From: Pyrinomonadaceae bacterium
Lineage (GTDB): Bacteria > Acidobacteriota > Blastocatellia > Pyrinomonadales > Pyrinomonadaceae
Reading direction: 5' to 3'
DNA: 34,568 nt
NCBI GenBank assembly: GCA_023717565.1
Contig: JAMQPI010000700.1
Span: forward strand, 1-34,568
Position 1 is the stretch's first letter. The number at the start of each line of letters is the position of its first letter. The position numbers and the translations under genes were made by a program. The notes beneath the pieces were generated by a model, which worked only from the letters and a program-made list of their open reading frames with translations, did no database searches and was not told the DNA's origin. Shown one piece after another: positions 2-33,873 of the stretch.

Positions 2-2248
<2,247 letters not shown>

Positions 2249-7116: not shown

Positions 7117-10100
7117 CTATAGAGTCGCAGCCTGTAAAGTGACATTGCTCCAACTATTAAACGTCCCGGCCACGGTCCACTTCACCGTGAGAATCTGCCC
7201 CGCCGAGCCCGCCCGATAGTTCAGGGTGTAAAACCGGTTACTCGTTGAGGTGGAATTGATTAGAGACGTGTCGATGTAAACAGGAGCACTGCCATCGCTG
7301 AGACTTACTTCCAGCCGCCCTTGGGCCGCCCATAGACCGACATATAAGCGCAACACCCTGGTCGTTGTCTCCGCAGGAAGTGTCACCTGAAAACCATTTC
7401 CCAACCCGATGATGTAGATCCCGGTTGTGGTGTTGTTCGTGGAGGCCGTTGGCGTGCCACCGGTCCAACTGAAGGAATTCGTGTTGTTTGTGTAACGTTG
7501 CACAGTACCGCTACCGATACTGGTGTAGTTACTGATTTGTTGAACTGCTCCGTTCTTGTGATTGAGGCTGCTCGCCGTGGTCAATCCCCAATGCGCCCAG
7601 TCGGTTGTACCTTCCGTTGACAGGTTCTTGCTGACAGGCGTACTGGCAAAGGTGACGGATAACAACCCCGCAGCGGCAGAATTGACTGTGACAATCACGT
7701 CATCGCTGTTTGATGACACACTGTCATTTGCGGTTAGTCGAAGAGTGTAAACCCCGGCAACTGAGAAGCTGGCGGTGGTGGATAAAGAGTTGGCGTTGCC
7801 GAAGGTTACAGTGCCTGGGCCGCTGGCGTTGGACCAGGTGACGGTCGTCACACCCGGTGGATTTGGCAGACCATCATCCGAGGCGGCGCCGCTTAAGGTA
7901 GCAGTCGCCGCTAAGGTAATAGTCTGATCCACACCCGCATTGACTGTCGGGGCCTGATTGGTCTGTGCCACGTTAACTGTGACGACCATCTCATCACTCG
8001 TGTTGAGAACGCTGTCGTTGGCTGTCAGTCGCAAGGTGTAATTCCCGGCGATAGAGAAGCTTGCGGTGGTAGAGAGCGCGTTGGCATTAGTGAATGTGAC
8101 GATGCCGGGACCACTGACCTTAGACCAGGTCGGTGTTAACACGCCGGGCGGATTAGGCAGACCATCATCAGAGGCCGTGCCATTCAAGGAAGCTGTGGCC
8201 GGCAGGGTAATCGTTTGATCCGCACCTGCATTTACGCTGGGCGCCGTGTTGGAATTGACCGTCACAAGCAGATCGTCGTCACTTACAAGAGCGCTGTCAT
8301 TAGCGCTCAGTCGAAGGCTGTAAACGCCGGCGGCTGAGAAGGTCGCGGTAGTGGAAAGCGCGTTGGCATTAGTGAATGTAACGGTGCCGGGGCCACTGAC
8401 TTTGGACCAAGTCGGTGTTAGCACGGCGGGCGGATTCGGCAGACCATCGTCAGAGGCCGTGCCATTCAAGGACGCCGTGGCCGGCAATGTAATCGTTTGA
8501 TCGCTACCCGCATTAACTGTTGGCGCTTGATTGGGCGGTGGCCCTCCACTTGTTGCAAGGGTCGCGGCCTGCAATGTGACATTGCTCCAGTTGTTGAACG
8601 TCGAAGTGATTGTCCACCTCACGATAAGAGTTTGGCCGCTTGTGCCCGCCTGATAGTTCAGCGTATAGACGCGGTTCGTCGTAGCCGTCGCGTTCACAAT
8701 AGAAGTGTCAACGTAAGCAGCCGCGCTGCCATCGCTCAAGGTTGCATTTAGTCTGCCTCGAGCCGCCCAGAGCCCGAGGTAGAGCTTCAACACCCTCGTG
8801 GTTGTGTCTGCTGGAACATTGATCTCAAAACCGTTATTTAGACCTATGACGTACAGACCCGTTGTCGTATTGGTTGCGGAAGCGGTCGGTGTTCCTGCGG
8901 TCCAGGTGTACGCGTTAGGATTATTGCTATAACGCTGGACCACGCCGCCGCCGATGTTTGTATAGTTGCTGATCTGCTGAGTAATACTGCTCTTGTGATT
9001 GAAACTGGCCGCGGTTGTTAATCCCCAGTGGGCCCAATCGCTAGCACCCTCAGTTGTGAGATTCTGACTCGCAGGAGGATTGTCACTACTGACTGTCAGC
9101 GAGCCTGGCACAGCGCTGGGATTGACGGTCACAATCATATCGTCAGTAGTAAGTAGCGAGCCGTCATCACCCGTTAGTCTCAAAGTGTAAACGCCAGGGA
9201 TCGAGAAGCTGGCAGTGGTCGACAGCGAGTTGGCGTTGGCGAACGCGACCATACCAGGCCCACTTACCTGCGACCATATCGTTGTCAAGGCTCCCGGTGG
9301 AGTCGGCAACCCGTCATCGGCTCCGCTTCCATTCAAGGCAGCAGTTGCCGGAAACGTAATTGTCTGATCGATGCCCGCGTTGATTGCTGGTGCCTCATTG
9401 GGCGGCGTCAACCTACTAGTTGCGAGAGTCGCCGCCTGCAGAGTGACGTTTCCGAGAGGATTCGAATTGGTCAGCACCGTCCATCTTATCGTCAGGGTCT
9501 GTCCATTACTTCCCGCGTGGTAGTTGAGGGTATAGACAAGGTTACTGACGCCTGAGGAGTTCACCAACGAGGTATCAACGTAAGGAGAGGCGCTGCCATC
9601 GCTAAGGGTCACTTCCAGCTTACCCTGGGCTGCCCAGACACCAACGTACAACTTCAACACTCTAGTCGTGATATCTGCCGGAACTGTCACTTGAAAACCG
9701 TCGCCCAACCCATATGTATAAACACCAGTAGTGGTGCTTGCCGAGCCTGTCGGCGTCCCATCCGTCCAACTGTATGCATTTGCGTTGTTCGTGTATCTAA
9801 GAATGCTGGTGGCGCCGATTTGACTATAGTTACTGATCTGTTGAGCAACGCCACTCTTATGATTGAAGCTGGTCGCCGTTGTTAATCCCCAGTGCGACCA
9901 GTCCGATGTGCCTTCGGTGGTTAGACTTTGATTCGCCGGAGGATTACTTGTGCTGACCGAAAGCAAACCGGTCGCAATGCTGGGATTGACTGCGACTACA
10001 AGGTCGTCGCTGGTCTGCAGAACATTGTCGTTGGCAGTTAGTCGCAAAGTATAGATTCCGGCGATTGAGAAAGTGGCCGTGGTTGATAATGATTCGACAT

Positions 10101-15273: not shown

Positions 15274-16764
15274 TTAGTCTTCCACAACGTGTTTTGTAAA
15301 CTCGGTTCGATACTCCCGCCAACTTGCATCATTGAAATGGCCGGACTCGTCGAGGCAGCCGACCGCGGCATATGCCATTGCTAAGGTGTGATGCGTATTG
15401 TCGTGCGCAAACAGCCCCTGCCTACCAATACTGAGCACCCGATCAAGGCCACTGGCCCACTCATCGAGCACATTGAAGTACTCATCGTATCCTTCCTGAT
15501 AAATGGGATAGGCGTAAGGAAGGCGTTTTGACGCAACCTGAATGATAGTAGACTTGATCGGCAAGCCACATTGCTCTACGGAGCGGCGTACGACGTCAGC
15601 CAGTTCAAGGTCTGTAGCGCTCCAGATTTCATCGTCAACTGAGCAAGGAATTTCTCCACAGAGCACAGTCTTACTTTCGGGATCCATGCGCCCGCTGTAA
15701 TTCTTAGGTTCCGACAGTCGCGTCAACTTGATCTCTTCCTCTGGAAAATAATGCGCATCAAATGGCGTCCACTGTGGTTGGTCAAGTACGAGGTAGACCA
15801 ATATCATCCCCCGGAACCTAATACGCTTGCTCGCTTCGATTACTTTCAAAGGAGGCGACGGATGTGTGATGCGAGCCAAGAGCGAGATTGGAACCGTTGA
15901 CCAGACATAGTCTGCTTCATAGTGTCTGAGCTGGCCCTCCTGCTCGACTCCAACGCAATGAGGCGTCCCCAAATTCAGGCTGCGCACTGACGCGCCCAAC
16001 TGTAAATCTGCGCCTGCCGCTGTTGCCGCCCTGGCAATCGCTCTGCTGATCTCGCCGTAGCCGCCGCGCGGGTAATAAAAACGGCCCGCCCCGGGTGCTT
16101 TGAAGCCCGGCAGCAAACCAACAACCTTACTAACCATTTTGCCCAATGAACCGGCGGAAACACGACGATGCGCCTGAATTGACGAGAGTTCAGCTGGATC
16201 GAGGCCCCAAATTTTTCGCGCATAGGGAAAATAGAAGTCGCGGCAAATGGTTTGGCCCAAGCCGCGCTCCAGGACGCTGGCAAACGTTTCTCGTTGCGCC
16301 GCTGGTCGCGTGATCGATTTGCGCGCAGAGTCAAACGCAACACCTGCCGCAAAAGAAGGCGGCAAATGAAATAGAAGATCGAACGGCTTAAGCGGAAAAT
16401 GTATCCAGTGCTCCCGCAGGCGAATCCGCCCATGACGCGGTCGATCGAGTAATTCGCTTCCCATCAACGTGCGTAAGTCCTCGAGAATCTGCGGCGCGCA
16501 CGCCGGGTGTAGACGATGACTACCGTAATCAACTGACAATCCGGCGAGGTCAAAACTGCCGGCGTTTCCTCCTACGTCTTCCCCTTGCTCAAAAACTGAG
16601 ACGTCGGCTTTTCCTTGACGCGCGAGTTGCCACGCCGCCCCTAACCCTGCCGGACCAGCTCCCAGTATCGCTACGCGTGTACGCTTCGCCTTGGATTGTT
16701 CCGGCATACTTCTGGCCCTGCCAAGTGCAAATGTTCTGCGACGAGGATTGATGTCGGTTACCAT
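15274..16764 (-). CDS. FAD-dependent oxidoreductase (HemY/UDP-galactopyranose-mutase-like)
   Basis: The 496-residue protein has the dinucleotide motif [10 protein letters not shown] at residues 34-43 and the FAD-family GGNAGSF segment. It also has [10 protein letters not shown], and a C-terminal [18 protein letters not shown] segment where the flavin sits in this family. It resembles the second FAD enzyme at 27796-29640, but without that protein's membrane tail. Such proteins in glycan clusters are often labelled protoporphyrinogen oxidase or UDP-galactopyranose mutase. A reaction on sugar or prenyl-lipid substrates is more plausible here than haem synthesis, since no other haem gene is present. 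The first 20-30 residues are poorly conserved, and the start could be ATG 16707. It lies six bases after the ICMT-like gene. Confidence 0.78.
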
Positions 16765-16770
16765 CTCTCT

Positions 16771-17373
16771 TTATATTACGAATGGAATAAAGCGCTTGGT
16801 GCTCGAGCAATAAGCTGCGTAGTCTGGCAGGGAACGAATTAATTTCTCTTCTTCTCGCACGGCTTGCATCAGTACAACCGGAATCAATAGCAAGATGCCA
16901 ATCAGAAGCCACGAGTTCAAGGCTAATTCCAATCCAACCAGCAACATCAAATCGCCCACGTAGATAGGATGTCGTATGAAGCGGTACGGACCGTTTCTCA
17001 CGATGAACTGTTGGGCGCCGATCCTGGCGGCTTCAATATCAGACCAATTGTCTCCGAGTTCTTTACGACTGCAGATAGCTATCCAGAGACCGACTGTATA
17101 GATAAGAGTGCCTGCGATTCGTAACAACAGGGGCTCCTCACTGATCGGCAAAATGTCGGGCAACAGGGTTTGGACGACAATGCCTAGGAGGATCGCGATT
17201 TTCACGACTTTGACTGCCCGCACCGACAGTTGCTGCCAGGTCAGTGGCTTCCCAGATTTCATTGAACTCGATCCAGGATCTGAGACCTGAGACTCTTGCC
17301 GCCGTCTTAAGATTTCCCAAACGGCTTTGTGTACCAGCAGGCCACTCAATAGATAGATTCGTAAAAGCAACAT
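16771..17373 (-). CDS. Isoprenylcysteine carboxyl methyltransferase (ICMT/PEMT)-family membrane protein
   Basis: The 200-residue membrane protein has about five membrane segments. The C-terminal block GPYRFIRHPIYVGDL, followed by a helix and EEEKLI, is the SAM-binding signature of the ICMT/phospholipid methyltransferase family. Bacterial members methylate lipid or isoprenoid substrates, and most have no assigned substrate. It starts one base after the stop of the GT2 gene (TGAGATG), so translation is probably coupled. In this context methylation of a prenyl-linked glycan or of lipid is conceivable, but that is inference. Confidence 0.82.
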   Translation of the reverse strand: MLLLRIYLLSGLLVHKAVWEILRRRQESQVSDPGSSSMKSGKPLTWQQLSVRAVKVVKIAILLGIVVQTLLPDILPISEEPLLLRIAGTLIYTVGLWIAICSRKELGDNWSDIEAARIGAQQFIVRNGPYRFIRHPIYVGDLMLLVGLELALNSWLLIGILLLIPVVLMQAVREEEKLIRSLPDYAAYCSSTKRFIPFVI

Positions 17374-17374
17374 C

Positions 17375-18364
17375 TCAGTTCTTACCCACCGAGTAGATTA
17401 CGGGCTTCTTCATTGCAGTTGGCCGAATTATGCTTCCATCAAGAATTTCGGGTTCTCCGTCAGATTCAAACTCCTTTGGGCGCACACCAAATGCAGTCTG
17501 CGGATTAAGTCGTCCCAGACGCGACGCGATTGCCTCCCCAAGCATACCCACGAGCGTTAGTTGCATGGCGCCCATGAGTGCCAGGATGGCGGTCGCTGAG
17601 ATATTTGGATCTCGAAACATATCAATGGTCCCCTTAGCCAAACCATACGCCAGGCAAACCAGGGCCAACGGAATAAAGACCCGTAGCGGCTTGAACAGCA
17701 TGGCAATTCGCAAGATCAGAATCGCAAAACTTCCCGCGTCCCACGGTACTATCTTCGAGCGGCCCGATCGCTTTCGATAGTCAATGGGGACGTAGGTCAC
17801 TGCATACTTGTCGCACAGCATTGCCATGGTGATGGTCGTAGTAAAACTAAACTGATCCGGTAGGATCGAAAAATATTGCATTACCACGTCCCGCCGAAAG
17901 ACCCGCAGACCGCTATTCAAGTCAGGTATGTCGCGCCCGGAAACATAATTTGCCAACCGGTTTAGCATCCATTTGGCGGGCCGCCTAACCAGCGGAATAC
18001 TCACCTTGCTTCCCGTGCGCGCACCTACAACCATGTCCGCGTGCTCCAAGTCCTGGAGCATCTGGGGAAGATAATGGGCCGGATAAGTGCCATCGGCATC
18101 GGTGATGGCGATGACATCGTTGCACGCCTGAAAAATGCCCGTCTTCAGTGACGCACCATAGCCCCGATTGCTTCGGTGTTGAATCACGCGAGCTCCTGCC
18201 GCCTTCGCTTCGTTAGCGGTCCGATCGCTCGAACCATCGTCGACAACAATAAACTCGGCGGAAATCTCATGTGCCTGAAGTAACTTGCGTAACTCCATAA
18301 TGGAGCTTCCCACGGACGCCTCTTCATTGAACGCTGGCATCACGATGCTGACTGACTTCATCAT
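17375..18364 (-). CDS. GT2 glycosyltransferase, polyprenyl-phosphate sugar synthase-like (DPM1 type)
   Basis: The 329-residue protein has a GT-A domain with PAFNEE, VDDGSSDR (Asp42, Asp43) and a DAD metal motif (Asp89, Asp91). QFSFTTTITMAML and RSGRSKI are typical of the DPM1/GtrB type. Two hydrophobic segments follow (about residues 225-275). These enzymes move a hexose from an NDP-sugar to polyprenyl phosphate, giving donors for GT-C transferases outside the membrane. I chose ATG 18364, because GGAGG sits seven bases upstream. An in-frame ATG at 18382 lies before that site. Several GT-C genes surround it, which fits a donor-making role. Confidence 0.88.
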   Translation of the reverse strand: MMKSVSIVMPAFNEEASVGSSIMELRKLLQAHEISAEFIVVDDGSSDRTANEAKAAGARVIQHRSNRGYGASLKTGIFQACNDVIAITDADGTYPAHYLPQMLQDLEHADMVVGARTGSKVSIPLVRRPAKWMLNRLANYVSGRDIPDLNSGLRVFRRDVVMQYFSILPDQFSFTTTITMAMLCDKYAVTYVPIDYRKRSGRSKIVPWDAGSFAILILRIAMLFKPLRVFIPLALVCLAYGLAKGTIDMFRDPNISATAILALMGAMQLTLVGMLGEAIASRLGRLNPQTAFGVRPKEFESDGEPEILDGSIIRPTAMKKPVIYSVGKN

Positions 18365-18370
18365 TTCACT

Positions 18371-18376
18371 TCCTCC
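18371..18376 (-). promoter_or_regulatory. Strong Shine-Dalgarno site fixing the start of the DPM1-type GT2
   Basis: On the minus strand the bases read GGAGGAAGTGAA before ATGATG. The GGAGG core is seven bases from the first ATG (18364). This places the start six residues inside the longest open frame. Confidence 0.75.
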
Positions 18377-18479
18377 AATCACCAGACTCTCGTACCGTTT
18401 GCCTCAAGGGAGAGGCGTTTCCGAAGATCTGGATGGTCCTCGAACGTACTTGTTTCTTTGCTAGCCTAACTTTGCAGTA

Positions 18480-20318: not shown

Positions 20319-21891
20319 AATTCTTTTCTTTCCCAACACTCCAAAGCGTCCAAATGACCGCTCCGCACACGACCAACAAAGGTATCGTTGAGGTTCCGTC
20401 GGCGACATAGCCCATCTTGCCCAACGTCGTGAGCCACGGCAGACGGAAACCTTCAAGCGTGACACGCCTGACTGGTTCAAGAACGCCGAGTCCCTGCTCT
20501 ACATCGCGATACATCGCCAGGCACCAGGACCAGTAAGTCGCCACAATGCCAAATAATACGGCAATAATTTTCGGCAAACGCAGCAACACACTCGATGCCA
20601 GCAAAAAGAGAAACGGCACAACCGGCACGATGTAACGCACGCCGCTATTGAACTGCAGTCGTCCGAATTGATTAGCCGAGCAAAAAAGAAAAAAGAGAAC
20701 CGTGAAGACCACGATGCACCACGTCTCAAGGTTGCCGACCAGACGAGTGCGCTTGTTGAGCCAGCCCGGAACCCAGAGTGCTAGGAGCAACAACGGCGCT
20801 GAAGTGAACAACCCGAAGCGCATCCCGAAAGCTGTCTGCCAGAGCAAATCCACATGAGGCCGATCCATTCCGTTGTAACCGTAACCGGAAAACTCAGTAG
20901 GCGGCATATATCGCTGCGCTGGATAAAGCGGATGCCCGAAGTTGACCCACTGGTACGCCATCAGTATGGCGGCGCAAGCGGCAACGCCCGCGACGAAGTA
21001 CCAGATGTCTCGCCGCGACCTGGCTTCAGTCGGAAGTTTGGCGCGGCGCATGATTGCGTAAAGTCCCAGCACCACCGGAACGACCACACCGCTGTAATCC
21101 ACTACAACGGCCCATCCGCACAAGAGTCCGGCCAACAAATAATTTGGACGACCCGGCCGCGAAGGCTTATCCCACGGACGCCACAACAACGCGAAGGCGA
21201 ACAAGGCGCAGTGTGCGACCAGCAGGTTTTGATTCAGTTGCCCCGTCCTAAAGAATACTGGAGTAGCAAACGCATAAAGCAGTGTCAGCAACAATGCTGT
21301 GCGTGTCTGAAGGTTCAGGCCAATGAGGATGTAGAACATCACCACTGCGCTCAAAGCGGAAAGTGGCGCCATGGCAAAACCCTGTATCACGCCTGTCGCC
21401 AACCCGAATTTCACATCGTAGCCACGTTCGCGCGAACGACGGTAGAACTCGCGCGCCATCGGATACGGCGAGTCATAAACAACAGCTATCTCATCCTGAG
21501 GTGACGAAGCGCGGGCGTGCTTTGTGCGCTCGACGAGTTGATCGATCAGAGGGCGAGTGATTGTATAGGGAATCGCTCCAATGATCGATGCGCCCGGATT
21601 ATTGTTGATGAAAACCCCGTGACCCGGAATCTCAAAAAGATCAGGGTGTAGTCCGGCATATTCGGAGACATTAAAACTAAGGTGGTCGCCGAGGCTCAAT
21701 GCAGGGTAAATCTCGCGGACTGTGTTGGTGGCAAAGTGCAAGCCGTAGATAAGCCAGCACGTTATGAACAGACGAAACGCAATGCCTCGCGTTGAAAAGC
21801 GCCAGGTAAGCTTCCTGGGAAAACCGGAAGGTCCTGGAATGACCAACACTTCGCGATGCGTCATCATCGCGGTCTTGATTCCCTGCTTCAT
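20299..21891 (-). CDS. Polytopic membrane protein, GT-C-like
   Basis: The 530-residue membrane protein has a long loop after the first helix (YPALSLGDHLSFNVSEY, then GHGVFINNNPGASIIG). The region beyond it is strongly hydrophobic. The large early outer loop followed by about ten helices recalls GT-C proteins, but a clear acidic pair is hard to place. Its ATG at 21891 overlaps the stop of the flippase gene in an ATGA arrangement, so the longer frame from 21948 is rejected. The 4-base overlap suggests coupled translation. Function is probably glycan transfer or polymerisation, and a Wzy-like role cannot be excluded. Confidence 0.68.
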   Translation of the reverse strand: MKQGIKTAMMTHREVLVIPGPSGFPRKLTWRFSTRGIAFRLFITCWLIYGLHFATNTVREIYPALSLGDHLSFNVSEYAGLHPDLFEIPGHGVFINNNPGASIIGAIPYTITRPLIDQLVERTKHARASSPQDEIAVVYDSPYPMAREFYRRSRERGYDVKFGLATGVIQGFAMAPLSALSAVVMFYILIGLNLQTRTALLLTLLYAFATPVFFRTGQLNQNLLVAHCALFAFALLWRPWDKPSRPGRPNYLLAGLLCGWAVVVDYSGVVVPVVLGLYAIMRRAKLPTEARSRRDIWYFVAGVAACAAILMAYQWVNFGHPLYPAQRYMPPTEFSGYGYNGMDRPHVDLLWQTAFGMRFGLFTSAPLLLLALWVPGWLNKRTRLVGNLETWCIVVFTVLFFLFCSANQFGRLQFNSGVRYIVPVVPFLFLLASSVLLRLPKIIAVLFGIVATYWSWCLAMYRDVEQGLGVLEPVRRVTLEGFRLPWLTTLGKMGYVADGTSTIPLLVVCGAVIWTLWSVGKEKNYGRSKI

Positions 21892-23345
21892 GCCTTGATG
21901 CCGTCTTGTGCCTTGGCGAGCCCCTCTGACAATCGTCGCGCGCTCCAATTGCGACGTAGCGTCACCAACTCGCGCAACCGTTCACGGACGGTCGGGTCAA
22001 GAAACAGCGCCACCATCACCAATAACAGCAACGACAGCGCTGCTCGAGCCCTGGCTGACTCCAATGGCAGCCACCAAATGCCTGACGCCAGAAGAACAGC
22101 GATTAGCGGGCGAGCTAGCAAGTTTTCATGGCCCTTGAGCCCCAGCAGTCGGTAACAAGACAGCCATGCGCCCAGCCAGATCACAGTTTCAGTTACGACC
22201 AGTCCCAACGCTGCCCCGTTCAGTCCCCAACTGAAATATCCGATTGGAATCAGAACCAATGCGACGACGGCACCGAGAGCTGTTATCAACATCTCTGTGC
22301 TCTGATAACCCGCCGCAATCAAGCCAAAGCGATAGTGACCATTAATAAAGGCCATGACACAGACTCCGGCCATCAAAGCGAGAACACCTCCCCCCGATCC
22401 GAACTCTGGTCCATACACAAACAGCATCACATCATTAGCAAACAACACCCACGCCAGTCCTGCGGTTACGCCAACCCAAACCACACCGTGCATCGAGCGT
22501 TCAATCAAACGGCTGAAACTGCCGTCGCCCAGCTGCCAGCTTCTCGACATTGAGGGCAACAAATTGAAGTAGTAGAGCCAAACGAATGTATGCAGCGCCA
22601 CCAGGATTCGCTGTGCTCCGGCAAAAACACCAACCTCTTGGGCCGATGCGATCAGGCCTAGAATGAGCGTTCCACCAAACATTTTCACGACCCAGAACAT
22701 CTGGCTGAGCCCAATGGGCACGCCTTCACGAAACAAGCGCGCGGAAACAGCCGGACGAATTCGAGTGCTAGCTCCAAAGTGGCGCCGGTACATCCAGAAG
22801 CTGAAGAGGGCGGCGCTCGTGACGCCGGCAACTTCGGCCCACGCGACCATGAGGATCTGATCCGACCTGCGTAAAAACACAAAGACAGTCGCTGCAAAAA
22901 TCGTCTGCCGTATGACCTGGACAGCCGCTACCAGATCCATTCGTTCGTGTCCCTGGAACACCCACTGAAGCATTAGGGGCATGGCCCAAAGACTCAGGCC
23001 GTAAACCAACAACAAACGCATCATCACAGGACCGCGATCCATAAGGAGCGCAAACAACACTATGGCCAAATAGCCGGCAGCTGCGAGCACGGCGCGCACC
23101 GTAATGACCTCCGCCGCCAGCCGCCCTGTTTTCTCGGGCGTTTTTGCGATTTCCCGAGCTCCATAAGGGCTAAAACCCTGATCCACGATCAAACTGGCAC
23201 ACATCAATACTGCTCCGGCAAACTCGATGTACCCGAAGTCGCTGACGCCCAGAGTACGAGCCAGATATGCGAACGCAGCAAACGTGAGTAACTTGCTGAA
23301 GACTTCCGCGCCCGCCAGAGACAGAAAGTTCTTAAATAGTTTCAA
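21888..23345 (-). CDS. Oligosaccharide flippase (Wzx/MOP superfamily)
   Basis: The 485-residue protein has about twelve to fourteen membrane segments and the Wzx-type N-terminus: LAGAEVFSKLLTFAAFAYLA, then TLGVSDFGYIEFA. It is expected to flip a lipid-linked glycan from the inner to the outer leaflet. The start is a TTG at 23345, supported by AAGGA nine bases upstream. That Shine-Dalgarno site lies across the stop codon of the radical SAM gene. An in-frame stop just upstream excludes a longer protein. It is the only flippase in the window, and its 3' end overlaps the next gene by four bases. It marks the locus as a flippase-dependent pathway rather than an ABC-exporter one. Confidence 0.88.
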   Translation of the reverse strand: MKLFKNFLSLAGAEVFSKLLTFAAFAYLARTLGVSDFGYIEFAGAVLMCASLIVDQGFSPYGAREIAKTPEKTGRLAAEVITVRAVLAAAGYLAIVLFALLMDRGPVMMRLLLVYGLSLWAMPLMLQWVFQGHERMDLVAAVQVIRQTIFAATVFVFLRRSDQILMVAWAEVAGVTSAALFSFWMYRRHFGASTRIRPAVSARLFREGVPIGLSQMFWVVKMFGGTLILGLIASAQEVGVFAGAQRILVALHTFVWLYYFNLLPSMSRSWQLGDGSFSRLIERSMHGVVWVGVTAGLAWVLFANDVMLFVYGPEFGSGGGVLALMAGVCVMAFINGHYRFGLIAAGYQSTEMLITALGAVVALVLIPIGYFSWGLNGAALGLVVTETVIWLGAWLSCYRLLGLKGHENLLARPLIAVLLASGIWWLPLESARARAALSLLLLVMVALFLDPTVRERLRELVTLRRNWSARRLSEGLAKAQDGIKA

Positions 23346-23350
23346 TGAGG

Positions 23351-24547
23351 CTATCCTTTAACGTTGCGCTGGGGACTCAGCATGTTCGGTTCCCGGTTCA
23401 GTTGGACTATCGGTAAGGGTTGTCTTACACCAGGCTTTCTCCAGTCAACACGCTCTTCGGCGGGGAGCGTTTCTGCTTTGCGCCAGACCTTTGCCCCAAC
23501 CAATGCTTTGGTAAGTTGGCGCGGTTGAAATGTGATACTGGGCCATAGAAAAATCTCGTTAGTGCAATAACAGTCTTTGGATCGGATAGAGGCGCGCAGC
23601 TTATCCGCTTCTTCCGAATACCAGATGTCCTTAAAAGATCTCTCACGGATGTTTCCCAGTGGCTTATGAGCTTCGCAAACACTGACGTCTCCGTTGGAGT
23701 AAATTACCGCGCTTAAGACACCGGCCTTACACGGTACGACCTGTCGCTGCTCCGCTGCCGTTTTCACTTTGGCCCACTGGAGCATGGGCTCGACGACACT
23801 GCCATATCTCGCCTCCTCGCGTGGTGCCCACAAACGTCGAACATACTCCGCCAGTCCCTGGTACTCAGTTAGCTTGGGTCCTTGTAAAGAGGGATTCTTT
23901 CGATCGCCACGAATCAGCGCCAGGTTGTGGTGGGACATTTTCGGGCAACGCTCGTAAAGAAACGTCGTCAAGCGTTTGATCTCGTCCATGTTGTCTGACG
24001 TTGCGGTGGAGATCGAATGGATCTGCAGCCGCTGGTCTTCCTGCTGCAACTCAGCCAAAGCATCGTAGGTCTCCATGGCCTTGACGAATGATCCCTTCGA
24101 AACGCGAAACGTATCGTGGAACTCCTCCATACCGTCGAGGGATAGTTCGATAACGAATAACCTCAAACTCTTTTCTTTGAGTGTCTCGCGAATCTGCTCA
24201 ATAGTCCGTTCGGTGAAATAGCCATTGCTCGGAACGTAAATCTCTTTGACGCCATTGTGCTTGATGAACTGGCGACAGATTGCGCCGAAATCCTTTCGCA
24301 GAAAGGGCTCGCCTCCCGACAGATTCAAGTTTTCAATGTGTCCTAACTGCTCAGAGATACCGACCATCTCTTCGAAGGTCAGGTCGTCTCGCCGGTTCAG
24401 ATTCTGCCAGTAGAAGCAGTGTTCGCACTTCATGTTGCAGATCGAGTTGATAAACAAAATGACAAACGGCGGACTGGGAACTTGAGTAGAATCGAGACTT
24501 TGCCAGTTCAAACGGGCGTGTTTTGCAATTCGACTAATGACATTCAT
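23351..24547 (-). CDS. Radical SAM protein with SPASM-like C-terminus
   Basis: The 398-residue protein has the 4Fe-4S motif C-x3-C-x2-C as CNMKCEHC (Cys37, Cys41, Cys44) and the SAM-contacting [11 protein letters not shown]-terminal cysteines in [14 protein letters not shown] and DCYC resemble a SPASM or twitch auxiliary-cluster domain. The family does radical chemistry on peptides, sugars or small molecules. I see no precursor peptide beside it, so a glycan- or lipid-related substrate is more likely here, but unproven. ATG 24547 is chosen because AAGAGGAG lies about seven bases upstream. The longer frame to 24568 has no such site. It sits directly upstream of the flippase gene. Confidence 0.85.
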
Positions 24548-24633
24548 AGGACACTCCTCTTGTAACAACGCGCGATTGGAATCTGTTTACGAAGCTCGAG
24601 CTTGTTTCAGAATGCGTGGCTCGCGATTGGGGC

Positions 24634-25413
24634 TTATAAGGTGCCGGAATCGGAAAAGAAAACCCGGCGCGCTCGTCTGCCCAACCGGCGAAAGGCTAGA
24701 TATTGGTCGAGTTGCCCGTCCAGCAAACTGGCAAACCGCTGCCGTGATCTCAGGTAGTGCATATCCACGCGGGGCAGCACGTCGAGGGGATCAGAGTTAG
24801 CTCGTCTTAATTCAGTCGTGCAAGAAGCGCGAAAATGAGTAGCTGCCAGGCGGCGCGAGACTGGATCAATTCCACCATAAGGATAGGCAAAACTCTGCGG
24901 CTGCAATCCCAGATGCTTCTCAATCTCGGCGCGTGAAACCATCATCTCCTTCTCCACTTGGGCGGTAGAACAACGACGCAAGTCGCGATGTGTCTGCGTG
25001 TGGGATCCTATTTCGATCCCCGAACGTGCCAGCTCTGCAGCCTGCTGCCATGAAAGAATTGGCAGTACTCCTAGACCTTCTGGGCGTGGCCCCCAATCAT
25101 TGAGCCCACCCATATGGCCGCAGACCGTGAAAACCGTTGCCGTGAAACCATGCCGGCCAAGAACCGGCATGGCAGCTTCGTAAAAATTTGCGAAGCCATC
25201 ATCGAATGTCAGAACGACCACTCGTTCAGGCCATACGCCCATCCGCTCACGGAAAGTTATGGCTTCTGCTAGCGACGTCCCTCGTATCGCTCTTTCGGAC
25301 AAGCAATCCATCTGCCTTGCAAAATCCATAGGGCCAACGGAAACGACCGACCCACTGGGATCGACCGAGTGGTAAGTCAGAATTGCCAATTTGTTTGTGT
25401 TTGCCACCTTCAC
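24634..25413 (-). CDS. Polysaccharide deacetylase (NodB/CE4 family)
   Basis: The 259-residue protein has the CE4 motif TFDDGF (Asp71 as likely base, Asp72 as metal ligand), and SHTQTHRDL supplies the two metal-binding histidines (His138, His142). FAYPYGG is the third family motif. No signal peptide is evident, so it may act in the cytoplasm on a lipid-linked intermediate, or the true N-terminus may differ. The start is GTG 25413 with a GAGAAG-type site upstream. It removes an N- or O-acetyl group, which would make the glycan more charged. It starts 10 bases after the GT2 gene. Confidence 0.88.
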   Translation of the reverse strand: MKVANTNKLAILTYHSVDPSGSVVSVGPMDFARQMDCLSERAIRGTSLAEAITFRERMGVWPERVVVLTFDDGFANFYEAAMPVLGRHGFTATVFTVCGHMGGLNDWGPRPEGLGVLPILSWQQAAELARSGIEIGSHTQTHRDLRRCSTAQVEKEMMVSRAEIEKHLGLQPQSFAYPYGGIDPVSRRLAATHFRASCTTELRRANSDPLDVLPRVDMHYLRSRQRFASLLDGQLDQYLAFRRLGRRARRVFFSDSGTL

Positions 25414-25423
25414 TCTTGTCTTC

Positions 25424-26395
25424 TCAGGTCTCAGACACTGTCTCCTTCAGAGAGACTTCGGCTGGGTGCGGTCCGCCCAAATAACCAAGGAACTCTCCCA
25501 ACGCAGTTCCCACAACCAAACACGCTGCGAGCGGTAGAATTTGCGCGACCTGCCCGGGAGTGCGGTGTTGACGTAACATATTACGAAGCACACGGGCCAG
25601 AAGGAGCAGGGGTAAAACCAATGTACCGGCGCCATAGCCGATACGCACCCACGAGCTGATCTTTGCCACCCGAGTCTCGGCGAAAATGCGTCCCCATTCG
25701 ACTCTCTCGCGGAGGGCATGAAACATATTTATCTTTGGACGATGCTGGTAAACCACCATGCGCGGATCGAAAAAGAGCGAGTGCCCACGTGAACGTAGCG
25801 ACCAATGAACAGTTGTCTCGTGATAGACGCTGCGCCACACTTCACGAATCGCGTCCAATGCCTCGCGCTTGTAAGCAATGTTTACATCGGAAACATAACT
25901 CGCTTCACCAGACAGCAATGGTTTGCCGTAACGGCCGAAGTCACAATAGTAGAGTGCCCAGTTGATTGGTTCATCGACACCGTTCTCAATGGCGCCACCA
26001 ATCACGGTGTAGGGTTGCTCGTGGGCCAGGCAGATCTGCCGGCACCAGTCCGCAGCCGGAACAGCATGATCCTCTGTCATGGCGATGAGACGCCCGCGAG
26101 CGAGCGATAATCCAACGGCACGACGACGGTCATATAGACGGTGTTGATGTGAGGTGATACTCGCAGATGATGCTACCCCAGTATCATTTATGAAATGGAA
26201 ACGAGCTTGGGGATACTCTTCCGCCAAATCTCCGACTTCACCCGACCAACTGTCATAGGGAACTATGACTTCCGCCGTCGCAAAGTTTACTTGGGAACCG
26301 AGCGCGGAGAGCGACCGACGCACCAGTTCCTTGCCACCGACGACCGTCACTATAATTGACAGTTCAAGTTCAGAGGCTGGGTGGTTACTTGGCAT
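25424..26395 (-). CDS. GT2 family glycosyltransferase with C-terminal membrane segments
   Basis: The 323-residue protein starts with LSIIVTVVGGKELVRRSLSAL, a GT-A fold N-terminus. It has the acidic TEDHAVPAADW segment in place of a classic DxD, and an RRAVGLSLARG helix before it. Two hydrophobic segments near the C-terminus (about residues 250-300) would hold it at the membrane. This resembles GT2 proteins that add a sugar to a growing lipid-linked chain. ATG 26395 overlaps the upstream gene by 11 bases, and AAGGA lies five bases before it. Donor and acceptor are unknown. Confidence 0.82.
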   Translation of the reverse strand: MPSNHPASELELSIIVTVVGGKELVRRSLSALGSQVNFATAEVIVPYDSWSGEVGDLAEEYPQARFHFINDTGVASSASITSHQHRLYDRRRAVGLSLARGRLIAMTEDHAVPAADWCRQICLAHEQPYTVIGGAIENGVDEPINWALYYCDFGRYGKPLLSGEASYVSDVNIAYKREALDAIREVWRSVYHETTVHWSLRSRGHSLFFDPRMVVYQHRPKINMFHALRERVEWGRIFAETRVAKISSWVRIGYGAGTLVLPLLLLARVLRNMLRQHRTPGQVAQILPLAACLVVGTALGEFLGYLGGPHPAEVSLKETVSET

Positions 26396-27434
26396 GGGCG
26401 TCCTTGGGAAGCGGCATGGCCGGCTCGTTAGAAGTCTTTTCCAGATAGTGCAACAACGTCCCCCAGATCACACTGAAACCGCAATACCAGAAGTAAAGCC
26501 AATGAAGCGGTACGACGCGCAGAGTGAACCACACCCCCGAGCGCGCCAGAAAGAAGCGGTAGAAATCCAGATTCAGTAAAGTGACAGTCGCAGCAAGAGC
26601 CAGCGCCACGAATACAAACAATGGCCACCATAACGCTGCGGTCGCAAAAAAGAGCATCAGATAGGCCAGCGCGACGCTGAGACGCTGAGACGGCTTGACA
26701 TTGAGCGTGTTGGCAAGCGAACCGGCGCGTAACATTAGTCGCGTCCACGGAACACCGCGATCAAATATGTCGGTCTTCAAAAGGTTCCGCAGCGTCCAGC
26801 ACTTAAGGTGCTTGCCTTTGATTTGGCTGTCGAGAACGATCTTGTGTCCGGCTGCGTTCAGCCAGGTGCCCAGCTCAATGTCTTCAATGGCCGGACGACG
26901 ATAACGCTGTTCGTCAAATCCGCCGAATCCCAGGAACACCTCGCGCCGAATTGCCCCGCACCCGCTCCAGAACGTTCCAATTCTGCCGTCGGACTTTTGA
27001 TGAACGTAATGATGAAACAGATTCTTGTATTGCGAGAGGAAATTCGGCTTAGCCGGGGCATCGTCATAGGATCCGATCACGGCATCAATTGTCTGGTCGG
27101 AGGCGAAGGCCGCTGCAAAGCGCGCAAGTGTGTCCTTGTGAACGCACACGTCTGCATCAACGAAGACGACATAGCGACCATTTTGAAGGGCAACACCGCG
27201 ATTGCGCGCCCGGGCCGGTCCTCCGGGCCCTGCTATTCGGAGATAGGCGAACCCGTGTTCATCGACCAGCGGCTTCACCGGTTCCGTTGAACCATCGTCA
27301 ACCACCAGCACCTGAAAATCTCTAAACTCCGAGGCAGCCAGCGCAGCTAAACAGTGTTTGAGATCGGCCGTCGAATTGTAGACGGGCACGACAACAGCCA
27401 AAACTGGATGTTCCTGGCTCTTTTGTTTCACCAT
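26385..27434 (-). CDS. GT2 family glycosyltransferase, membrane-associated
   Basis: The 349-residue protein has the standard GT2 series: VVVPVYNS, VDDGSTEP, the metal-binding VDADV and the acceptor-loop FGGFDEQRYRRPAIEDIELG. Hydrophobic helices near residues 240-330 suggest membrane association. I chose ATG 27434, because AAGGA lies eight bases upstream. The longer frame to 27569 starts with an unlikely sequence that would overlap the small membrane protein gene. It probably adds a sugar to the lipid-linked glycan at the cytoplasmic face. It overlaps the next GT2 gene by 11 bases. Confidence 0.86.
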   Translation of the reverse strand: MVKQKSQEHPVLAVVVPVYNSTADLKHCLAALAASEFRDFQVLVVDDGSTEPVKPLVDEHGFAYLRIAGPGGPARARNRGVALQNGRYVVFVDADVCVHKDTLARFAAAFASDQTIDAVIGSYDDAPAKPNFLSQYKNLFHHYVHQKSDGRIGTFWSGCGAIRREVFLGFGGFDEQRYRRPAIEDIELGTWLNAAGHKIVLDSQIKGKHLKCWTLRNLLKTDIFDRGVPWTRLMLRAGSLANTLNVKPSQRLSVALAYLMLFFATAALWWPLFVFVALALAATVTLLNLDFYRFFLARSGVWFTLRVVPLHWLYFWYCGFSVIWGTLLHYLEKTSNEPAMPLPKDAHAK

Positions 27435-27454
27435 TGATCTATCCTTTGGATCTT

Positions 27455-27784
27455 TTACCGCTTCACATGTCGGACACCTACAACCTTGTTGTAAATGGTG
27501 CCAATGGACCAGCCAACGAGGCCGCCAACTAATGCGCCGTAAAGGAACCCGATTACGCTGCCCGGCCAAGTCACCGAATAACCCGGGAAGTAATTACCTA
27601 ATAGTTGCAAGTGCGCCCCTACGTTCGGTCCGTCTCTGAGTAGTAGCCACGCGGTCATCAGAAATAACCCGAATCCGCAGAGCAACGCGAAGACTATGGT
27701 CAACACTCCGGTCTGAATCCTCGCAATGGCTCGGCTCACTTCATCGATAGGCGGGTGATCGTTGCTCATCTCTACACTCATCAT
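27455..27784 (-). CDS. Small membrane protein homologous to the tail of the upstream FAD enzyme
   Basis: The 109-residue protein has two or three hydrophobic segments and an SVTWPGSVIGF core. Its residues 31-100 align without gaps to the C-terminal membrane tail of the protein encoded at 27796-29640, with about 24 of 44 positions identical by eye. From memory, similar short proteins are sometimes labelled bacteriophage holin, without evidence of lysis. Function is unknown; a membrane anchor or partner for the FAD enzyme is possible. AGGAGGT lies six bases before ATG 27784 and covers the stop codon of the FAD gene, so the two are likely translated together. Confidence 0.78.
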   Translation of the reverse strand: MMSVEMSNDHPPIDEVSRAIARIQTGVLTIVFALLCGFGLFLMTAWLLLRDGPNVGAHLQLLGNYFPGYSVTWPGSVIGFLYGALVGGLVGWSIGTIYNKVVGVRHVKR

Positions 27785-27787
27785 TTT

Positions 27788-27798
27788 TCCACCTCCTA
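27788..27798 (-). promoter_or_regulatory. Shine-Dalgarno site overlapping the FAD gene stop codon
   Basis: On the minus strand the bases read TAGGAGGTGG. The TAG is the stop of the FAD enzyme gene, and AGGAGGT is the ribosome site of the small membrane protein. This arrangement couples translation of the two homologous membrane segments. Confidence 0.8.
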
Positions 27799-29640
27799 AT
27801 CCAGTAGACTACGCTGCGACTCGGTCATCGCCCGACGTTGCAATAACCATGCATAGCCATCGATCCCTAGGTTTCTTAACCACGCAAACAAATAACCCAG
27901 CATGAAACCACCGATACAAGCCTCGACTAGGCCAATCAAGGCTCCGGGCAAGGTCACGCTGAAACCCAATAAGACGTTGTTCAGCAAAGAGAGAGTTGGG
28001 CCAACGACAGGTCCGCCTTTCAGGAGTAGAGCGATTGTCGCAATGAATAGACCTACTCCGGCGACAATTCCGACCGCCGCTCCCATCGCCACTGGATCCA
28101 ACTTCGCAAAGGCCGCTTCGATCAGTTCTTCCGGTGTCAATAGCCGCGGCACTAGGCGATCGCCTACCGTCGACACAGTGGCAGGTGCGGTTTCCGACAC
28201 CACAGGTTTGGCGATTGCGGTTTTCACACGAGCTTCCTCGTGATACTCCATTTCCGTGTTCACGGACCAGACATCGTGATTCTCGCCTATGATGTTGCGC
28301 GCCGCATAAACTGCCGTGAGCATCGAATGATCCTGATTGTTGTATCGATGAAGACCATTCCGTCCTACTGTCTGAAGGTTGCCTATGCTTTCAAGATAAT
28401 GGCGAATCGTGGCCAAGCTCTCTTGATAGTGCTGGTCATAGACTGGATAAGCCTTTTTCATCCGGACGACGGTTCCGTCTTCAATTTCGTCTGGTTCGAT
28501 GAGACCTATTCTGGCGCATTCTTGAATCCCCAGTTCTACTAGACGATCCTTTGACCAGTTCCATTCGTCATCCTTATCCCAAAGAAAATATTCTAAACCG
28601 AGCGAACTTCGAGCCGGGTCTGGAACCATATGTGGACTCCAGTTCTTATAGTTCTGAATGCGCCCCATTTTGACTTCCGGCGAATGGATATAAATCCAGT
28701 TATCGGGAAACACTTTTTCGCGTTTGGCGATCAACACCACGGTCAGGTAGTCGCGATAGCGTAACTTGTTGGCGGCCTCGATCACTTCGTCTGGAGGAGC
28801 CGGACTCAAAGCGCGAATGAGGCTGCGCAGGGGCATTGTCGAGACAAACTCGTCGCCGCCAAACTCTACAGACTCCCCGTCATGTGTGCGCCCAATCACG
28901 CACTCCACCCGACCACCACGGTGACGTATCTTCTCAACCTTAATGCCGCGCACTGTTGCATTTCCCTGCGCCGCCAGTAACTCCTCACACCGCTCCCACA
29001 TCATCCCTGGGCCAAAGCGAGGGTAGTTGAACTGCTCAATTAGCGTGGTAATGATTTCTCCGTTTTTTGAACTGCCATTCCCGAACAATGCATTTCGCAC
29101 CGCTTCGGGTAGCGACAGGTTCTTGATGCGCTGGGCGGCCCAGTCGGCTGAGATTTCCCTGCAGGGGATTCCCCAAACCTTCTCGGTGTAGGTCTTGAAA
29201 AAGATTTCGTAAAGACGATGTCCGAAACGGTTCGCGACCCACTGCTCGAGATTTGTTTCCTCGGCGTGAGGAAAGAGCTTCGCCTTGCCGAAGCTCATGC
29301 CGACGAGAAGAGCTTCGATGGGACCCAGTCCAGCAAGCGCGTTCGTAGCCTTTAGCGGGTAATCAAAGAAGTGTCCATCATAGTGAATCCTCGACAATCG
29401 TGGGCGTAGCAGAAAATCCTCTCCCAGGATCTCCTTCCAGAGCTCGTTAATCAGCGGCACTTTAGTGAAGAACCGGTGACCGCCAATATCAAACCGGTAG
29501 CCTTGATAGTTGACGGTGCGAGACAGCCCGCCAACCTGGCGGTCAGCTTCTAACACGGTCGAACCAATGCCGAACTTTGACAACTGGTACGCGGCGGTTA
29601 ATCCTGCGGGGCCCGCTCCCACGATTACTGCACTAGACAT
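27796..29640 (-). CDS. FAD oxidoreductase (UDP-galactopyranose-mutase/HemY-like) fused to a membrane domain
   Basis: The 614-residue protein begins with VIVGAGPAGLTAA (FAD-binding loop, residues 5-17). It has a GGLSRTVNYQGYRFDIGGHR block and a C-terminal GRNGLHRYNNQDHSMLTA flavin segment near residues 420-440. This is the group of FAD proteins common in glycan clusters and related to UDP-galactopyranose mutase. The reaction here is unproven. From about residue 517 there is a hydrophobic tail with two or three membrane segments, reading FSVTLPGALIGL in its core. The tail is homologous to the small protein encoded immediately downstream, so a fusion is likely. GGAGG lies seven bases upstream of ATG 29640. 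It is the first gene of the main block after a terminator-like hairpin. Confidence 0.8.
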   Translation of the reverse strand: MSSAVIVGAGPAGLTAAYQLSKFGIGSTVLEADRQVGGLSRTVNYQGYRFDIGGHRFFTKVPLINELWKEILGEDFLLRPRLSRIHYDGHFFDYPLKATNALAGLGPIEALLVGMSFGKAKLFPHAEETNLEQWVANRFGHRLYEIFFKTYTEKVWGIPCREISADWAAQRIKNLSLPEAVRNALFGNGSSKNGEIITTLIEQFNYPRFGPGMMWERCEELLAAQGNATVRGIKVEKIRHRGGRVECVIGRTHDGESVEFGGDEFVSTMPLRSLIRALSPAPPDEVIEAANKLRYRDYLTVVLIAKREKVFPDNWIYIHSPEVKMGRIQNYKNWSPHMVPDPARSSLGLEYFLWDKDDEWNWSKDRLVELGIQECARIGLIEPDEIEDGTVVRMKKAYPVYDQHYQESLATIRHYLESIGNLQTVGRNGLHRYNNQDHSMLTAVYAARNIIGENHDVWSVNTEMEYHEEARVKTAIAKPVVSETAPATVSTVGDRLVPRLLTPEELIEAAFAKLDPVAMGAAVGIVAGVGLFIATIALLLKGGPVVGPTLSLLNNVLLGFSVTLPGALIGLVEACIGGFMLGYLFAWLRNLGIDGYAWLLQRRAMTESQRSLLD

Positions 29641-31896: not shown

Positions 31897-32625
31897 TTAA
31901 CCGAACAAGGCCGTGCGCGCTTGGTAATCCACCGCCTTCAGTCCCGTCGACTCTCTGAAACTACGGGAGAAGTAGTGGCTGTCGGAGAACCCGACGCGCG
32001 CCGCTACCTCTTTCACGCTAAACTGACGCGAGGTAAGGATTCGTTTTGCTTCCTCGATACGCATATCTCGAAGCAGTTGACGGAAGCTTACCCCAACTTC
32101 CTGATTGAGAATCCGGGAGAGGCGTTTTGGCGAGATGGGCAGTTCCCTTGCGACCTGGTCCAAGTCGAGGCCAGGATCGGTATATTTCTCGGCTAGAACA
32201 CGCAGTACTTCGCGCAAGGTATCGTAGTTGCGCTCTTTGTGTAAGTGGGGGCAAGCAGCAATAGGCAGGATCTGGCGCAAAGCATGAACGATCTCTTGAT
32301 CGTTGTTGTTGCTTTGATCGCTCAGTATGAACTCGCCTCTGATGTATTCGCCGACATCACCCGGGTAGATAGTTTCTCGACGGAGGATGAGCACTGGCGT
32401 CTGCGGATAGATGCGACGCAGTTCGCTTAAGTAAAGCCGGCGCACTGGATACTGCGCAATCCCGATCACGATCAGGTTAATTGCATCGGTCCCACTCAGT
32501 CTTTCTCTATCTGCTGAGTGAACTGGGATCAGGTGTGCTTCAGGGACTCCCCCTCGTAACGCTGTGAGCGTATGCTCGCAACAGTCGACGGCCATGATAT
32601 GCAGTGCTGCTTCAGTATTAGTCAT
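31897..32625 (-). CDS. AraC-family regulator with an unrecognised N-terminal domain
   Basis: The 242-residue protein ends in an AraC/XylS DNA-binding domain (about residues 125-236), with VKEVAARVGFSDSHYFSRSF as the second helix-turn-helix. The N-terminal ~115 residues do not look like an arabinose-binding cupin. They have alternating strands such as IMAVDCCEHTL and INLIVIGIAQYPVRRL, suggesting a receiver-like or Rossmann-like fold without a clear phosphorylation Asp. It is paralogous to the regulator at 33160-33873. AGGAGG lies eight bases before ATG 32625. It may control the glycan genes downstream on the same strand. A 6-bp hairpin (31877-31895) follows its stop, without a U-tract. Confidence 0.85.
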   Translation of the reverse strand: MTNTEAALHIMAVDCCEHTLTALRGGVPEAHLIPVHSADRERLSGTDAINLIVIGIAQYPVRRLYLSELRRIYPQTPVLILRRETIYPGDVGEYIRGEFILSDQSNNNDQEIVHALRQILPIAACPHLHKERNYDTLREVLRVLAEKYTDPGLDLDQVARELPISPKRLSRILNQEVGVSFRQLLRDMRIEEAKRILTSRQFSVKEVAARVGFSDSHYFSRSFRESTGLKAVDYQARTALFG

Positions 32626-33159: not shown

Positions 33160-33873
33160 TCACCCGTAGATTGCATCTTGAGTGTGGTACTCGCTAGCGC
33201 TCAATCCTGTGAGTTTCTTAAAGGCGCGCGAAAAATAGTGACTGTCAGAGAAGCCGACACGAGCTGCCACTTCCTTAACACTGTATTGCCGTGAGGCCAG
33301 CAGACGCTTCGCCTCTTCGATGCGTGTCGTCGTCAGAAGTTGGCGGAAGCTAATGCCAACTTGTTGATTGAGGATCTTTGAGAGGACTGGTCGCGGCATC
33401 GTGAGTTCTCGGGCCACACGGGAAATATCAAGCTCCGGATCAGAGTAGTTTTCAGCTAACACTCGCATTACGTCCCGCACAGTGTCGTAGTTGTGAGTCT
33501 GGTTAACGTGCTCACACAGGGGTAGCGGCAGGACCTTCCTCAAGGAACGAACCATCTCCAGATCCGACTTATTACTGGGTTGTTGACTAAGAATGAACTC
33601 GCCACGAATCATGGCCTTGAGTCCGAGTTCATTCTCTGCTCGGCGCAAAATCATCAACGGAACGTCCGGATAGACACGGCGCAATTGGCTGATGAAAAGC
33701 CGGCGCACGGGATACTGCGCAATACCGATAACGATCAGATCAACATCGTGATGTGCCGAATGAGCTCGCTGCCTCTCCTTCGACGCGACCGGCGTCAACC
33801 GAACAGCGGGGACGCCTTCCAGAGCCTCCAGGGTGTGCTCGCAACAATCAATTGCCATTATGGATAGTTCCAC
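33160..33873 (-). CDS. AraC-family regulator, paralogue of the neighbour
   Basis: The 237-residue protein has the same layout as the regulator at 31897-32625: an N-terminal domain with IMAIDCCEHTL and VIGIAQYPVRRL, and a C-terminal AraC domain with VKEVAARVGFSDSHYFSRAF. The two are alike over nearly their full length, pointing to a tandem duplication. The start is GTG 33873, with GGGAG about ten bases upstream. ATG 33858 would cut the first strand. A weak promoter candidate lies upstream at 33909-33937. The two could bind similar sites and cross-regulate. Confidence 0.84.
   Translation of the reverse strand: MELSIMAIDCCEHTLEALEGVPAVRLTPVASKERQRAHSAHHDVDLIVIGIAQYPVRRLFISQLRRVYPDVPLMILRRAENELGLKAMIRGEFILSQQPSNKSDLEMVRSLRKVLPLPLCEHVNQTHNYDTVRDVMRVLAENYSDPELDISRVARELTMPRPVLSKILNQQVGISFRQLLTTTRIEEAKRLLASRQYSVKEVAARVGFSDSHYFSRAFKKLTGLSASEYHTQDAIYG

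What the first reader, a model, noticed from the sequence alone, without database searches (positions are those of the whole stretch)
27455..29640. FAD enzyme fused to a small membrane domain, followed by a free-standing copy of that domain
The C-terminal tail of the 614-residue FAD protein and the 109-residue neighbour align without gaps (about 24 of 44 core positions identical). The neighbour's ribosome site covers the FAD gene's stop codon. This suggests a heteromeric membrane complex that holds a glycan-tailoring flavoenzyme at the membrane, which I have not seen described.
Basis: partly seen in the sequence, partly recalled or inferred. Interest (0 to 1): 0.7.

Follow-up and report, generated by a model that had tools for sequence, protein, structure and literature searches.

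The report
Membrane-tethered sugar mutase with paired hairpin
A sugar-rearranging flavin enzyme carries its own two-helix membrane anchor and is always made next to a second, related anchor protein; the trio recurs in at least eleven bacterial phyla within glycan-making gene clusters, and I found no description of it.

Summary
In detail: FAD protein 27796-29640(-), neighbour 27455-27784(-), 24/44 core identities, Shine-Dalgarno AGGAGG starting inside the FAD stop codon. The tail (A) and the neighbour (B) are homologous (profile-profile E 9.5e-34). A genome scan with the membrane domain alone gave 77 loci in at least 11 phyla, and all carry the flavoenzyme: 56 as FAD-A fused with B directly downstream, 14 as the split operon A-FAD-B, seven damaged, cut or rearranged. 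A and B are two old paralogues in the tree. On the flavoenzyme tree the A+B state changes about nine times, and A and B were found together or not at all. The flavoenzyme is not generic: its model matches UDP-galactopyranose mutase (UGM) at Z 37, and eight UGM active-site residues are conserved. Its usual partner gene is one membrane GT2 glycosyltransferase. Best reading: a UGM-like mutase tethered to the inner membrane by a heteromeric A/B hairpin unit beside that transferase. Chemistry type, tether and co-dependence are well supported; the A-B contact and the substrate are inferred. NCBI's name for the domain, 'bacteriophage holin', is not supported. New variant of a known kind.

The parts
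27796..29640 (-). FAD protein, 614 aa: UGM-like catalytic domain (res 1-462), disordered linker (463-501), membrane hairpin A (503-614)
   Evidence: NF005548 696 bits, over its cut-off; AF2 model pLDDT 82.6 with disordered 463-501; VIA Z 37.3 to T. cruzi UGM 4dsh over res 1-467
27796..28134 (-). Hairpin A (res 503-614): two hydrophobic helices and a basic C-terminal helix
   Evidence: hydropathy peaks at res 531 and about 576, K+R 4.7 after TM2 against 0.5 in the loop; NF037947 42 bits, under cut-off 70; A signature D..R-N
27455..27784 (-). Free-standing hairpin B, 109 aa
   Evidence: AF2 two long helices 13-65 and 73-108, pLDDT 78.5; 44/44 B homologues match NF037947 at E<=0.01; B signature W..H..Y-N
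27785..27798 (-). FAD stop codon TAG overlapping the Shine-Dalgarno AGGAGG of B
   Evidence: sequence; FAD-to-B median gap 10.5 nt in 56 loci, several overlaps of 4 nt
26385..27437 (-). GT2 glycosyltransferase directly downstream of B (about 350 aa, hydrophobic C-terminal part); the module's recurrent partner
   Evidence: PF00535 8.4e-25; the same GT2 cluster is in 42 of the compared loci, within 600 bp of the module in 21 of 56 fused loci, and beside tailless relatives L113, L131, L140, L141
21888..26395 (-). Rest of the glycan cluster: second GT2 (25424-26395), polysaccharide deacetylase (24634-25413), radical SAM/SPASM (23351-24568), flippase-like protein (21888-23345)
   Evidence: Pfam hits for the first three; the same gene clusters recur beside split and fused modules; flippase assigned by eye

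Best explanation
The locus encodes a UGM-like flavoenzyme fixed to the cytoplasmic face of the inner membrane. Shown by sequence and model: (1) the catalytic domain has the UGM fold and the residues that in UGM bind the substrate's diphosphate and support the flavin-N5-sugar adduct; (2) a flexible linker joins it to a two-helix hairpin A; (3) a paralogous hairpin B is co-encoded directly after it; (4) A and B were found together or not at all. Inferred: (5) A and B pair into a four-helix or larger heteromeric unit through their glycine-rich faces; (6) the enzyme isomerises a diphosphate-linked pyranose, most simply to a furanose, with reduced FAD; (7) membrane mounting places it beside the adjacent GT2 transferase, so that the rare, high-energy isomer is used for the glycan as it forms.
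For: Homology of A and B. The domain-only genome scan gave 77 loci; all carry the FAD gene nearby, 56 fused plus B, 14 split A-FAD-B; the automatic table counts 76, and the 77th (L075) shows the FAD start cut by its contig end. A (fused 61 plus split 16) forms one supported group apart from B (SH-aLRT 95). FAD tree: tail state changes about 9 times, at least 6 forced by well-supported branches; tailless L104 and L140 lie inside fused clades (99/90 and 100/93), and neither has A or B in the stretch fetched. L075 has an A-like and a B-like hairpin in one ORF. UGM residues H63, Y104, R182, Y317, R327, Y419 align with an identical residue in 76/76 and Y453, N457 in 75/76 (one gap), roles per PMC4192007. 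Fold Z 37.3. Linkers 10-43 residues. Charge bias puts N and C termini in the cytosol. GT2 partner.
Against: No direct evidence of an A-B contact; the models are of single chains. Tailless relatives at up to 69% identity over the core keep the same catalytic residues, so the anchor is not needed for chemistry. The UGM residue N207 (TcUGM Asn201) has no counterpart and Q107 is K/R, so the nucleotide or substrate may differ from UDP-Galp. The score to the UGM equivalog model TIGR00031 is 30 bits against a cut-off of 304. For most tailless relatives only about 1.5 kb per side was examined for B.
Confidence: 0.55

Rival explanations
1. The substrate is a polyprenyl-diphosphate-linked sugar in the membrane, and the A/B hairpins present this lipid substrate to the enzyme rather than just holding the enzyme near a transferase.
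For: Both diphosphate-binding arginines are conserved while the N207 contact and the flap region are not (low-confidence segment 184-199); strict membrane tether, linkers as short as 10 residues; the loop between the helices is the most conserved part of the domain. Mycobacterial Glf, acting on a soluble sugar nucleotide, is mainly cytosolic (PMC10951656).
Against: Tailless relatives share the active site and are presumably soluble; Tyr104 and Phe66, which shape the nucleotide site in UGM, are kept in 76/76 and 72/76.
Confidence: 0.2
2. A and B form a small transporter or flippase-like unit for the glycan, and the fusion only couples it to the enzyme, as GtrA works beside GtrB.
For: A plus B make four helices, like GtrA; in a tailless relative the gene after the flavoenzyme is annotated GtrA (L142); glycine-rich helices.
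Against: No GtrA match in 44 B homologues; the clusters already carry a flippase-like gene; few charged or polar residues inside the helices.
Confidence: 0.12
3. B is an independent small protein whose nearness reflects duplication only; the tail alone is the anchor and B has no role with it.
For: B is a homologue of the tail and adjacency is common for young duplicates.
Against: The duplication is old: A and B separate in one tree across phyla; they stay together through many gains or losses; no fused-A locus lacks B except one cut by a contig end, L102.
Confidence: 0.06
4. The domain is a phage holin (lysis pore), as NCBIfam NF037947 is named.
For: All B homologues match NF037947 weakly.
Against: Window scores 42 and 22 bits against a cut-off of 70; no match in 50,697 phage records, in the IMG/VR scan or in PHROGs; always beside a sugar mutase-like gene.
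Confidence: 0.02

Closest known systems
Eukaryotic UDP-galactopyranose mutase (A. fumigatus, T. cruzi)
   Same: Fold (Z 37.3 over 440 residues) and active-site His, Tyr and Arg residues
   Different: About 22% identity; no counterpart of N207; the described enzymes lack a hairpin tail and a B partner (own knowledge)
Mycobacterial Glf with GlfT1/GlfT2
   Same: UGM serving membrane GT2 transferases that build a lipid-linked glycan
   Different: Glf acts on a soluble sugar nucleotide and was found mainly in the cytosol (PMC10951656); here the mutase carries its own anchor and a paralogous partner
PRK07208 / NF005548 family ('hypothetical protein', COG1232-like)
   Same: The catalytic domain belongs here (696 bits, cut-off 389)
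   Different: The family match ends at residue 474; tail A and B are not part of it and no function is assigned
NF037947 holin_4 ('bacteriophage holin')
   Same: Same two-helix domain family at profile level
   Different: Below cut-off; solitary high-scoring members (85 aa, L017, L019) lie in unrelated contexts, and no phage association was found

Membership tests
PRK07208-type FAD proteins (NF005548) | Score over the curated cut-off (389 bits) | tested here: met
   696.5 bits over residues 3-474
UDP-galactopyranose mutase | UGM fold | tested here: met
   Foldseek 9.6e-31 and VIA Z 37.3 to 4dsh, next family (protoporphyrinogen oxidase) Z 31.7
UDP-galactopyranose mutase | Active-site His63, Tyr104, Arg182, Tyr317, Arg327, Tyr419, Tyr453, Asn457 (AfUGM numbers) | tested here: met
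   identical in 76/76, or 75/76 with one gap; also in 20 tailless relatives at the sites checked
UDP-galactopyranose mutase | Asn207 (TcUGM Asn201) and Gln107 | tested here: not met
   N207 column is a gap in 75/76; Q107 is K or R in 72/76
UDP-galactopyranose mutase | Curated family scores (TIGR00031, PF03275) | tested here: not met
   30 against 303.75 bits and 16.8 against 26.3 bits; so it is filed as UGM-like, not as a UGM
UDP-galactopyranose mutase | Interconversion of UDP-Galp and UDP-Galf by reduced FAD | not testable with these tools
   needs an assay
NF037947 bacteriophage holin | Score over cut-off (70 bits) | tested here: not met
   42.1 (tail) and 21.6 (neighbour) bits
NF037947 bacteriophage holin | Occurrence in phages beside lysis genes | tested here: not met
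   no match in phage records, IMG/VR or PHROGs
GtrA small membrane proteins | PF04138 match | tested here: not met
   absent from the families listed for 44 B homologues at E<=0.1 (25 of 27 families shown)

The most novel reading that the evidence does not exclude
A membrane-integral sugar-mutase complex: the A/B heteromer forms a platform that presents polyprenyl-diphosphate-linked sugars to a UGM-type flavin site, so ring isomerisation happens on the lipid carrier rather than on a soluble nucleotide sugar.
Probability: 0.15. Interest if true: 0.85.

Novelty: new variant of a known kind. Interest (0 to 1): 0.58.

Why it matters
UGM-type mutases are known as soluble enzymes that feed membrane transferases. 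A conserved membrane-mounted version with an obligate paralogous partner, spread over at least eleven phyla, would show that some bacteria couple formation of a rare sugar isomer to its use at the membrane. It also gives function hypotheses for two large unnamed or misnamed families: PRK07208 ('hypothetical protein') and NF037947 ('bacteriophage holin').

Tried and rejected
Chance resemblance of hydrophobic segments: rejected by shuffles that keep hydrophobic positions and by profile comparison. Holin: rejected. A solved fold for hairpin B: no Foldseek match below E 2.8, so this says nothing either way. Generic amine oxidase or protoporphyrinogen oxidase: Pfam alone suggests it, but fold ranking and active site favour UGM. 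First domain alignment A1 was too diverse for the genome scan; A2 worked. In one script a too strict domain cut-off labelled 11 fused proteins as tailless; corrected. A contact between A and B could not be modelled: the tool folds single window chains only. Literature searches gave no description; subscription papers are not held.

Full report
What is there. The FAD gene (27796-29640, minus strand, 614 aa) ends in TAG, and the same bases begin the AGGAGG of the next gene (27455-27784, 109 aa), whose ATG follows 11 nt after the stop. The last 110 residues of the first protein and the second protein align over 88 columns without gaps, 24 of 44 core columns identical, score 140 against a shuffle maximum of 78. 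With 43 and 44 homologues on either side the comparison gives E = 9.5e-34. I call the fused copy A and the free copy B.

The enzyme. The catalytic part is a PRK07208-type protein (696 bits), a family without a function name. Sequence search against solved structures ranks eukaryotic UDP-galactopyranose mutases first. The AlphaFold model has a confident core, a disordered linker at 463-501 and a helical hairpin at 503-613; the core aligns to T. cruzi UGM at Z 37.3 over 440 residues, ahead of protoporphyrinogen oxidase at 31.7. Of the UGM active-site residues, H63, Y104, R182, Y317, R327 and Y419 are identical in 76 of 76 homologues, and Y453 and N457 in 75, with one gap (window H55, Y94, R171, Y317, R327, Y398, Y433, N435). 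The roles of most of them in diphosphate binding and in the flavin-N5-sugar pathway are described for TcUGM (PMC4192007). N207 has no counterpart, Q107 is K or R, and curated UGM models are not reached, so I do not file it as a UGM; it works like one. Tailless relatives keep the same site, so the tail serves location rather than chemistry.

The pair. The NCBI model NF037947 'bacteriophage holin' sees both copies below its cut-off and 44 of 44 B homologues, but the window's B protein and a solitary relative find nothing in phage records, and there is nothing in the IMG/VR scan or PHROGs. A scan of 84,980 named genomes with the domain alone returned 77 loci in 11 named phyla plus unplaced lineages. 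The flavoenzyme, which was not part of the query, is at all of them: 56 have FAD-A fused with B directly downstream (median gap 10.5 nt), 14 have a three-gene A-FAD-B operon, three have frameshifted or damaged forms, one is cut by the contig end before B (L102), two have an A+B pair with the FAD gene about 1-2 kb away (L059, L078), and L075 has domains followed by the first 40 or so residues of the FAD protein at the contig end. Split operons are found in Acidobacteriota, including genomes of the window's own family.

A and B are not recent copies. Fused A (61) and split A (16) form one group in the domain tree (SH-aLRT 95), apart from B (few columns, so finer forks are unresolved). A carries D before helix 1 and R-N after helix 2; B carries W, H and Y-N. 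On the flavoenzyme tree the A/B state changes about nine times, at least six forced by supported branches, and A and B were found together or not at all. Two tailless proteins, L104 in Acidobacteriota and L140 in Methylomagnum, sit inside fused clades and have neither A nor B within the stretch fetched. In 247 Acidobacteriota genomes 50 carry a relative of the enzyme; of the best 30 examined, those with a tail have B next to it, and those without have no B within about 1.5 kb, with one diverged A-like gene beside L121. In L075 an A-like and a B-like hairpin are one open reading frame of 235 aa, which is the best indirect hint that they touch.

How it most likely works. Charge bias puts the termini of both hairpins in the cytosol. 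The linker is 10-43 residues in 58 homologues, so the catalytic domain stays at the membrane surface. The recurrent partner is a GT2 glycosyltransferase, present in 42 of the compared loci and in 21 of 56 fused loci within 600 bp; in the window it starts just after B. Tailless relatives also lie beside it. By analogy with mycobacterial Glf and GlfT2, where Glf acts on a soluble sugar nucleotide and was found mainly in the cytosol (PMC10951656), I infer that this mutase makes a rare isomer, probably a furanose, for that transferase, and that A plus B keep it at the membrane. The A-B contact, the substrate and the product are inferred. The main rival is that the substrate itself is lipid-linked.

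Novelty. No paper found in the held library describes the module. Parts are known kinds (UGM-like fold, two-helix anchors); their obligate combination appears new. I rate it a new variant of a known kind.

Noticed in passing
15274-18382 (-): A second, distant PRK07208-like FAD protein (496 aa, 29% identical to the first) with a small methyltransferase-like membrane protein (by eye) and a DPM1-like GT2. It keeps R171, Y317 and R327 but has F and H at Y94 and Y433; similar proteins stand directly upstream of FAD-A in L052 and L098.
   Followed up: partly
L075:6022-7162: One domain gene, then a 235-aa ORF holding an A-like and a B-like hairpin, then the start of a FAD gene at the contig end: a natural A-B fusion.
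   Followed up: partly
L017, L019, L021, L023: Solitary 85-90 aa relatives of the hairpin, the type that scores near the NF037947 cut-off, beside a gene family of 115-119 aa (by eye AtuA-like) and, in three of the four, an aminotransferase-like gene; no flavoenzyme and no visible phage genes nearby.
   Followed up: no
L121:2916-3401: A very diverged A-like gene (17.5 bits) convergent to a tailless flavoenzyme, ending in the LLDKL-type C-terminus of A.
   Followed up: no
31897-32625 and 33160-33873 (-): Two similar AraC-type regulators in tandem (both with a 'CCEHTL' N-terminal motif) upstream of the glycan cluster (HTH_18 for the first).
   Followed up: no
7117-12126 (-) and 2-2248 (+): A 1669-aa protein and a protein with a very long Pro-Thr repeat share a repeated module of about 130 residues (LTTEG..DWSHWG..FNHKS..ISNY), seen by eye.
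   Followed up: no
L142:2361-4404: In Novosphingobium a tailless flavoenzyme relative is followed directly by a gene annotated GtrA, another small membrane protein of glycan systems.
   Followed up: no
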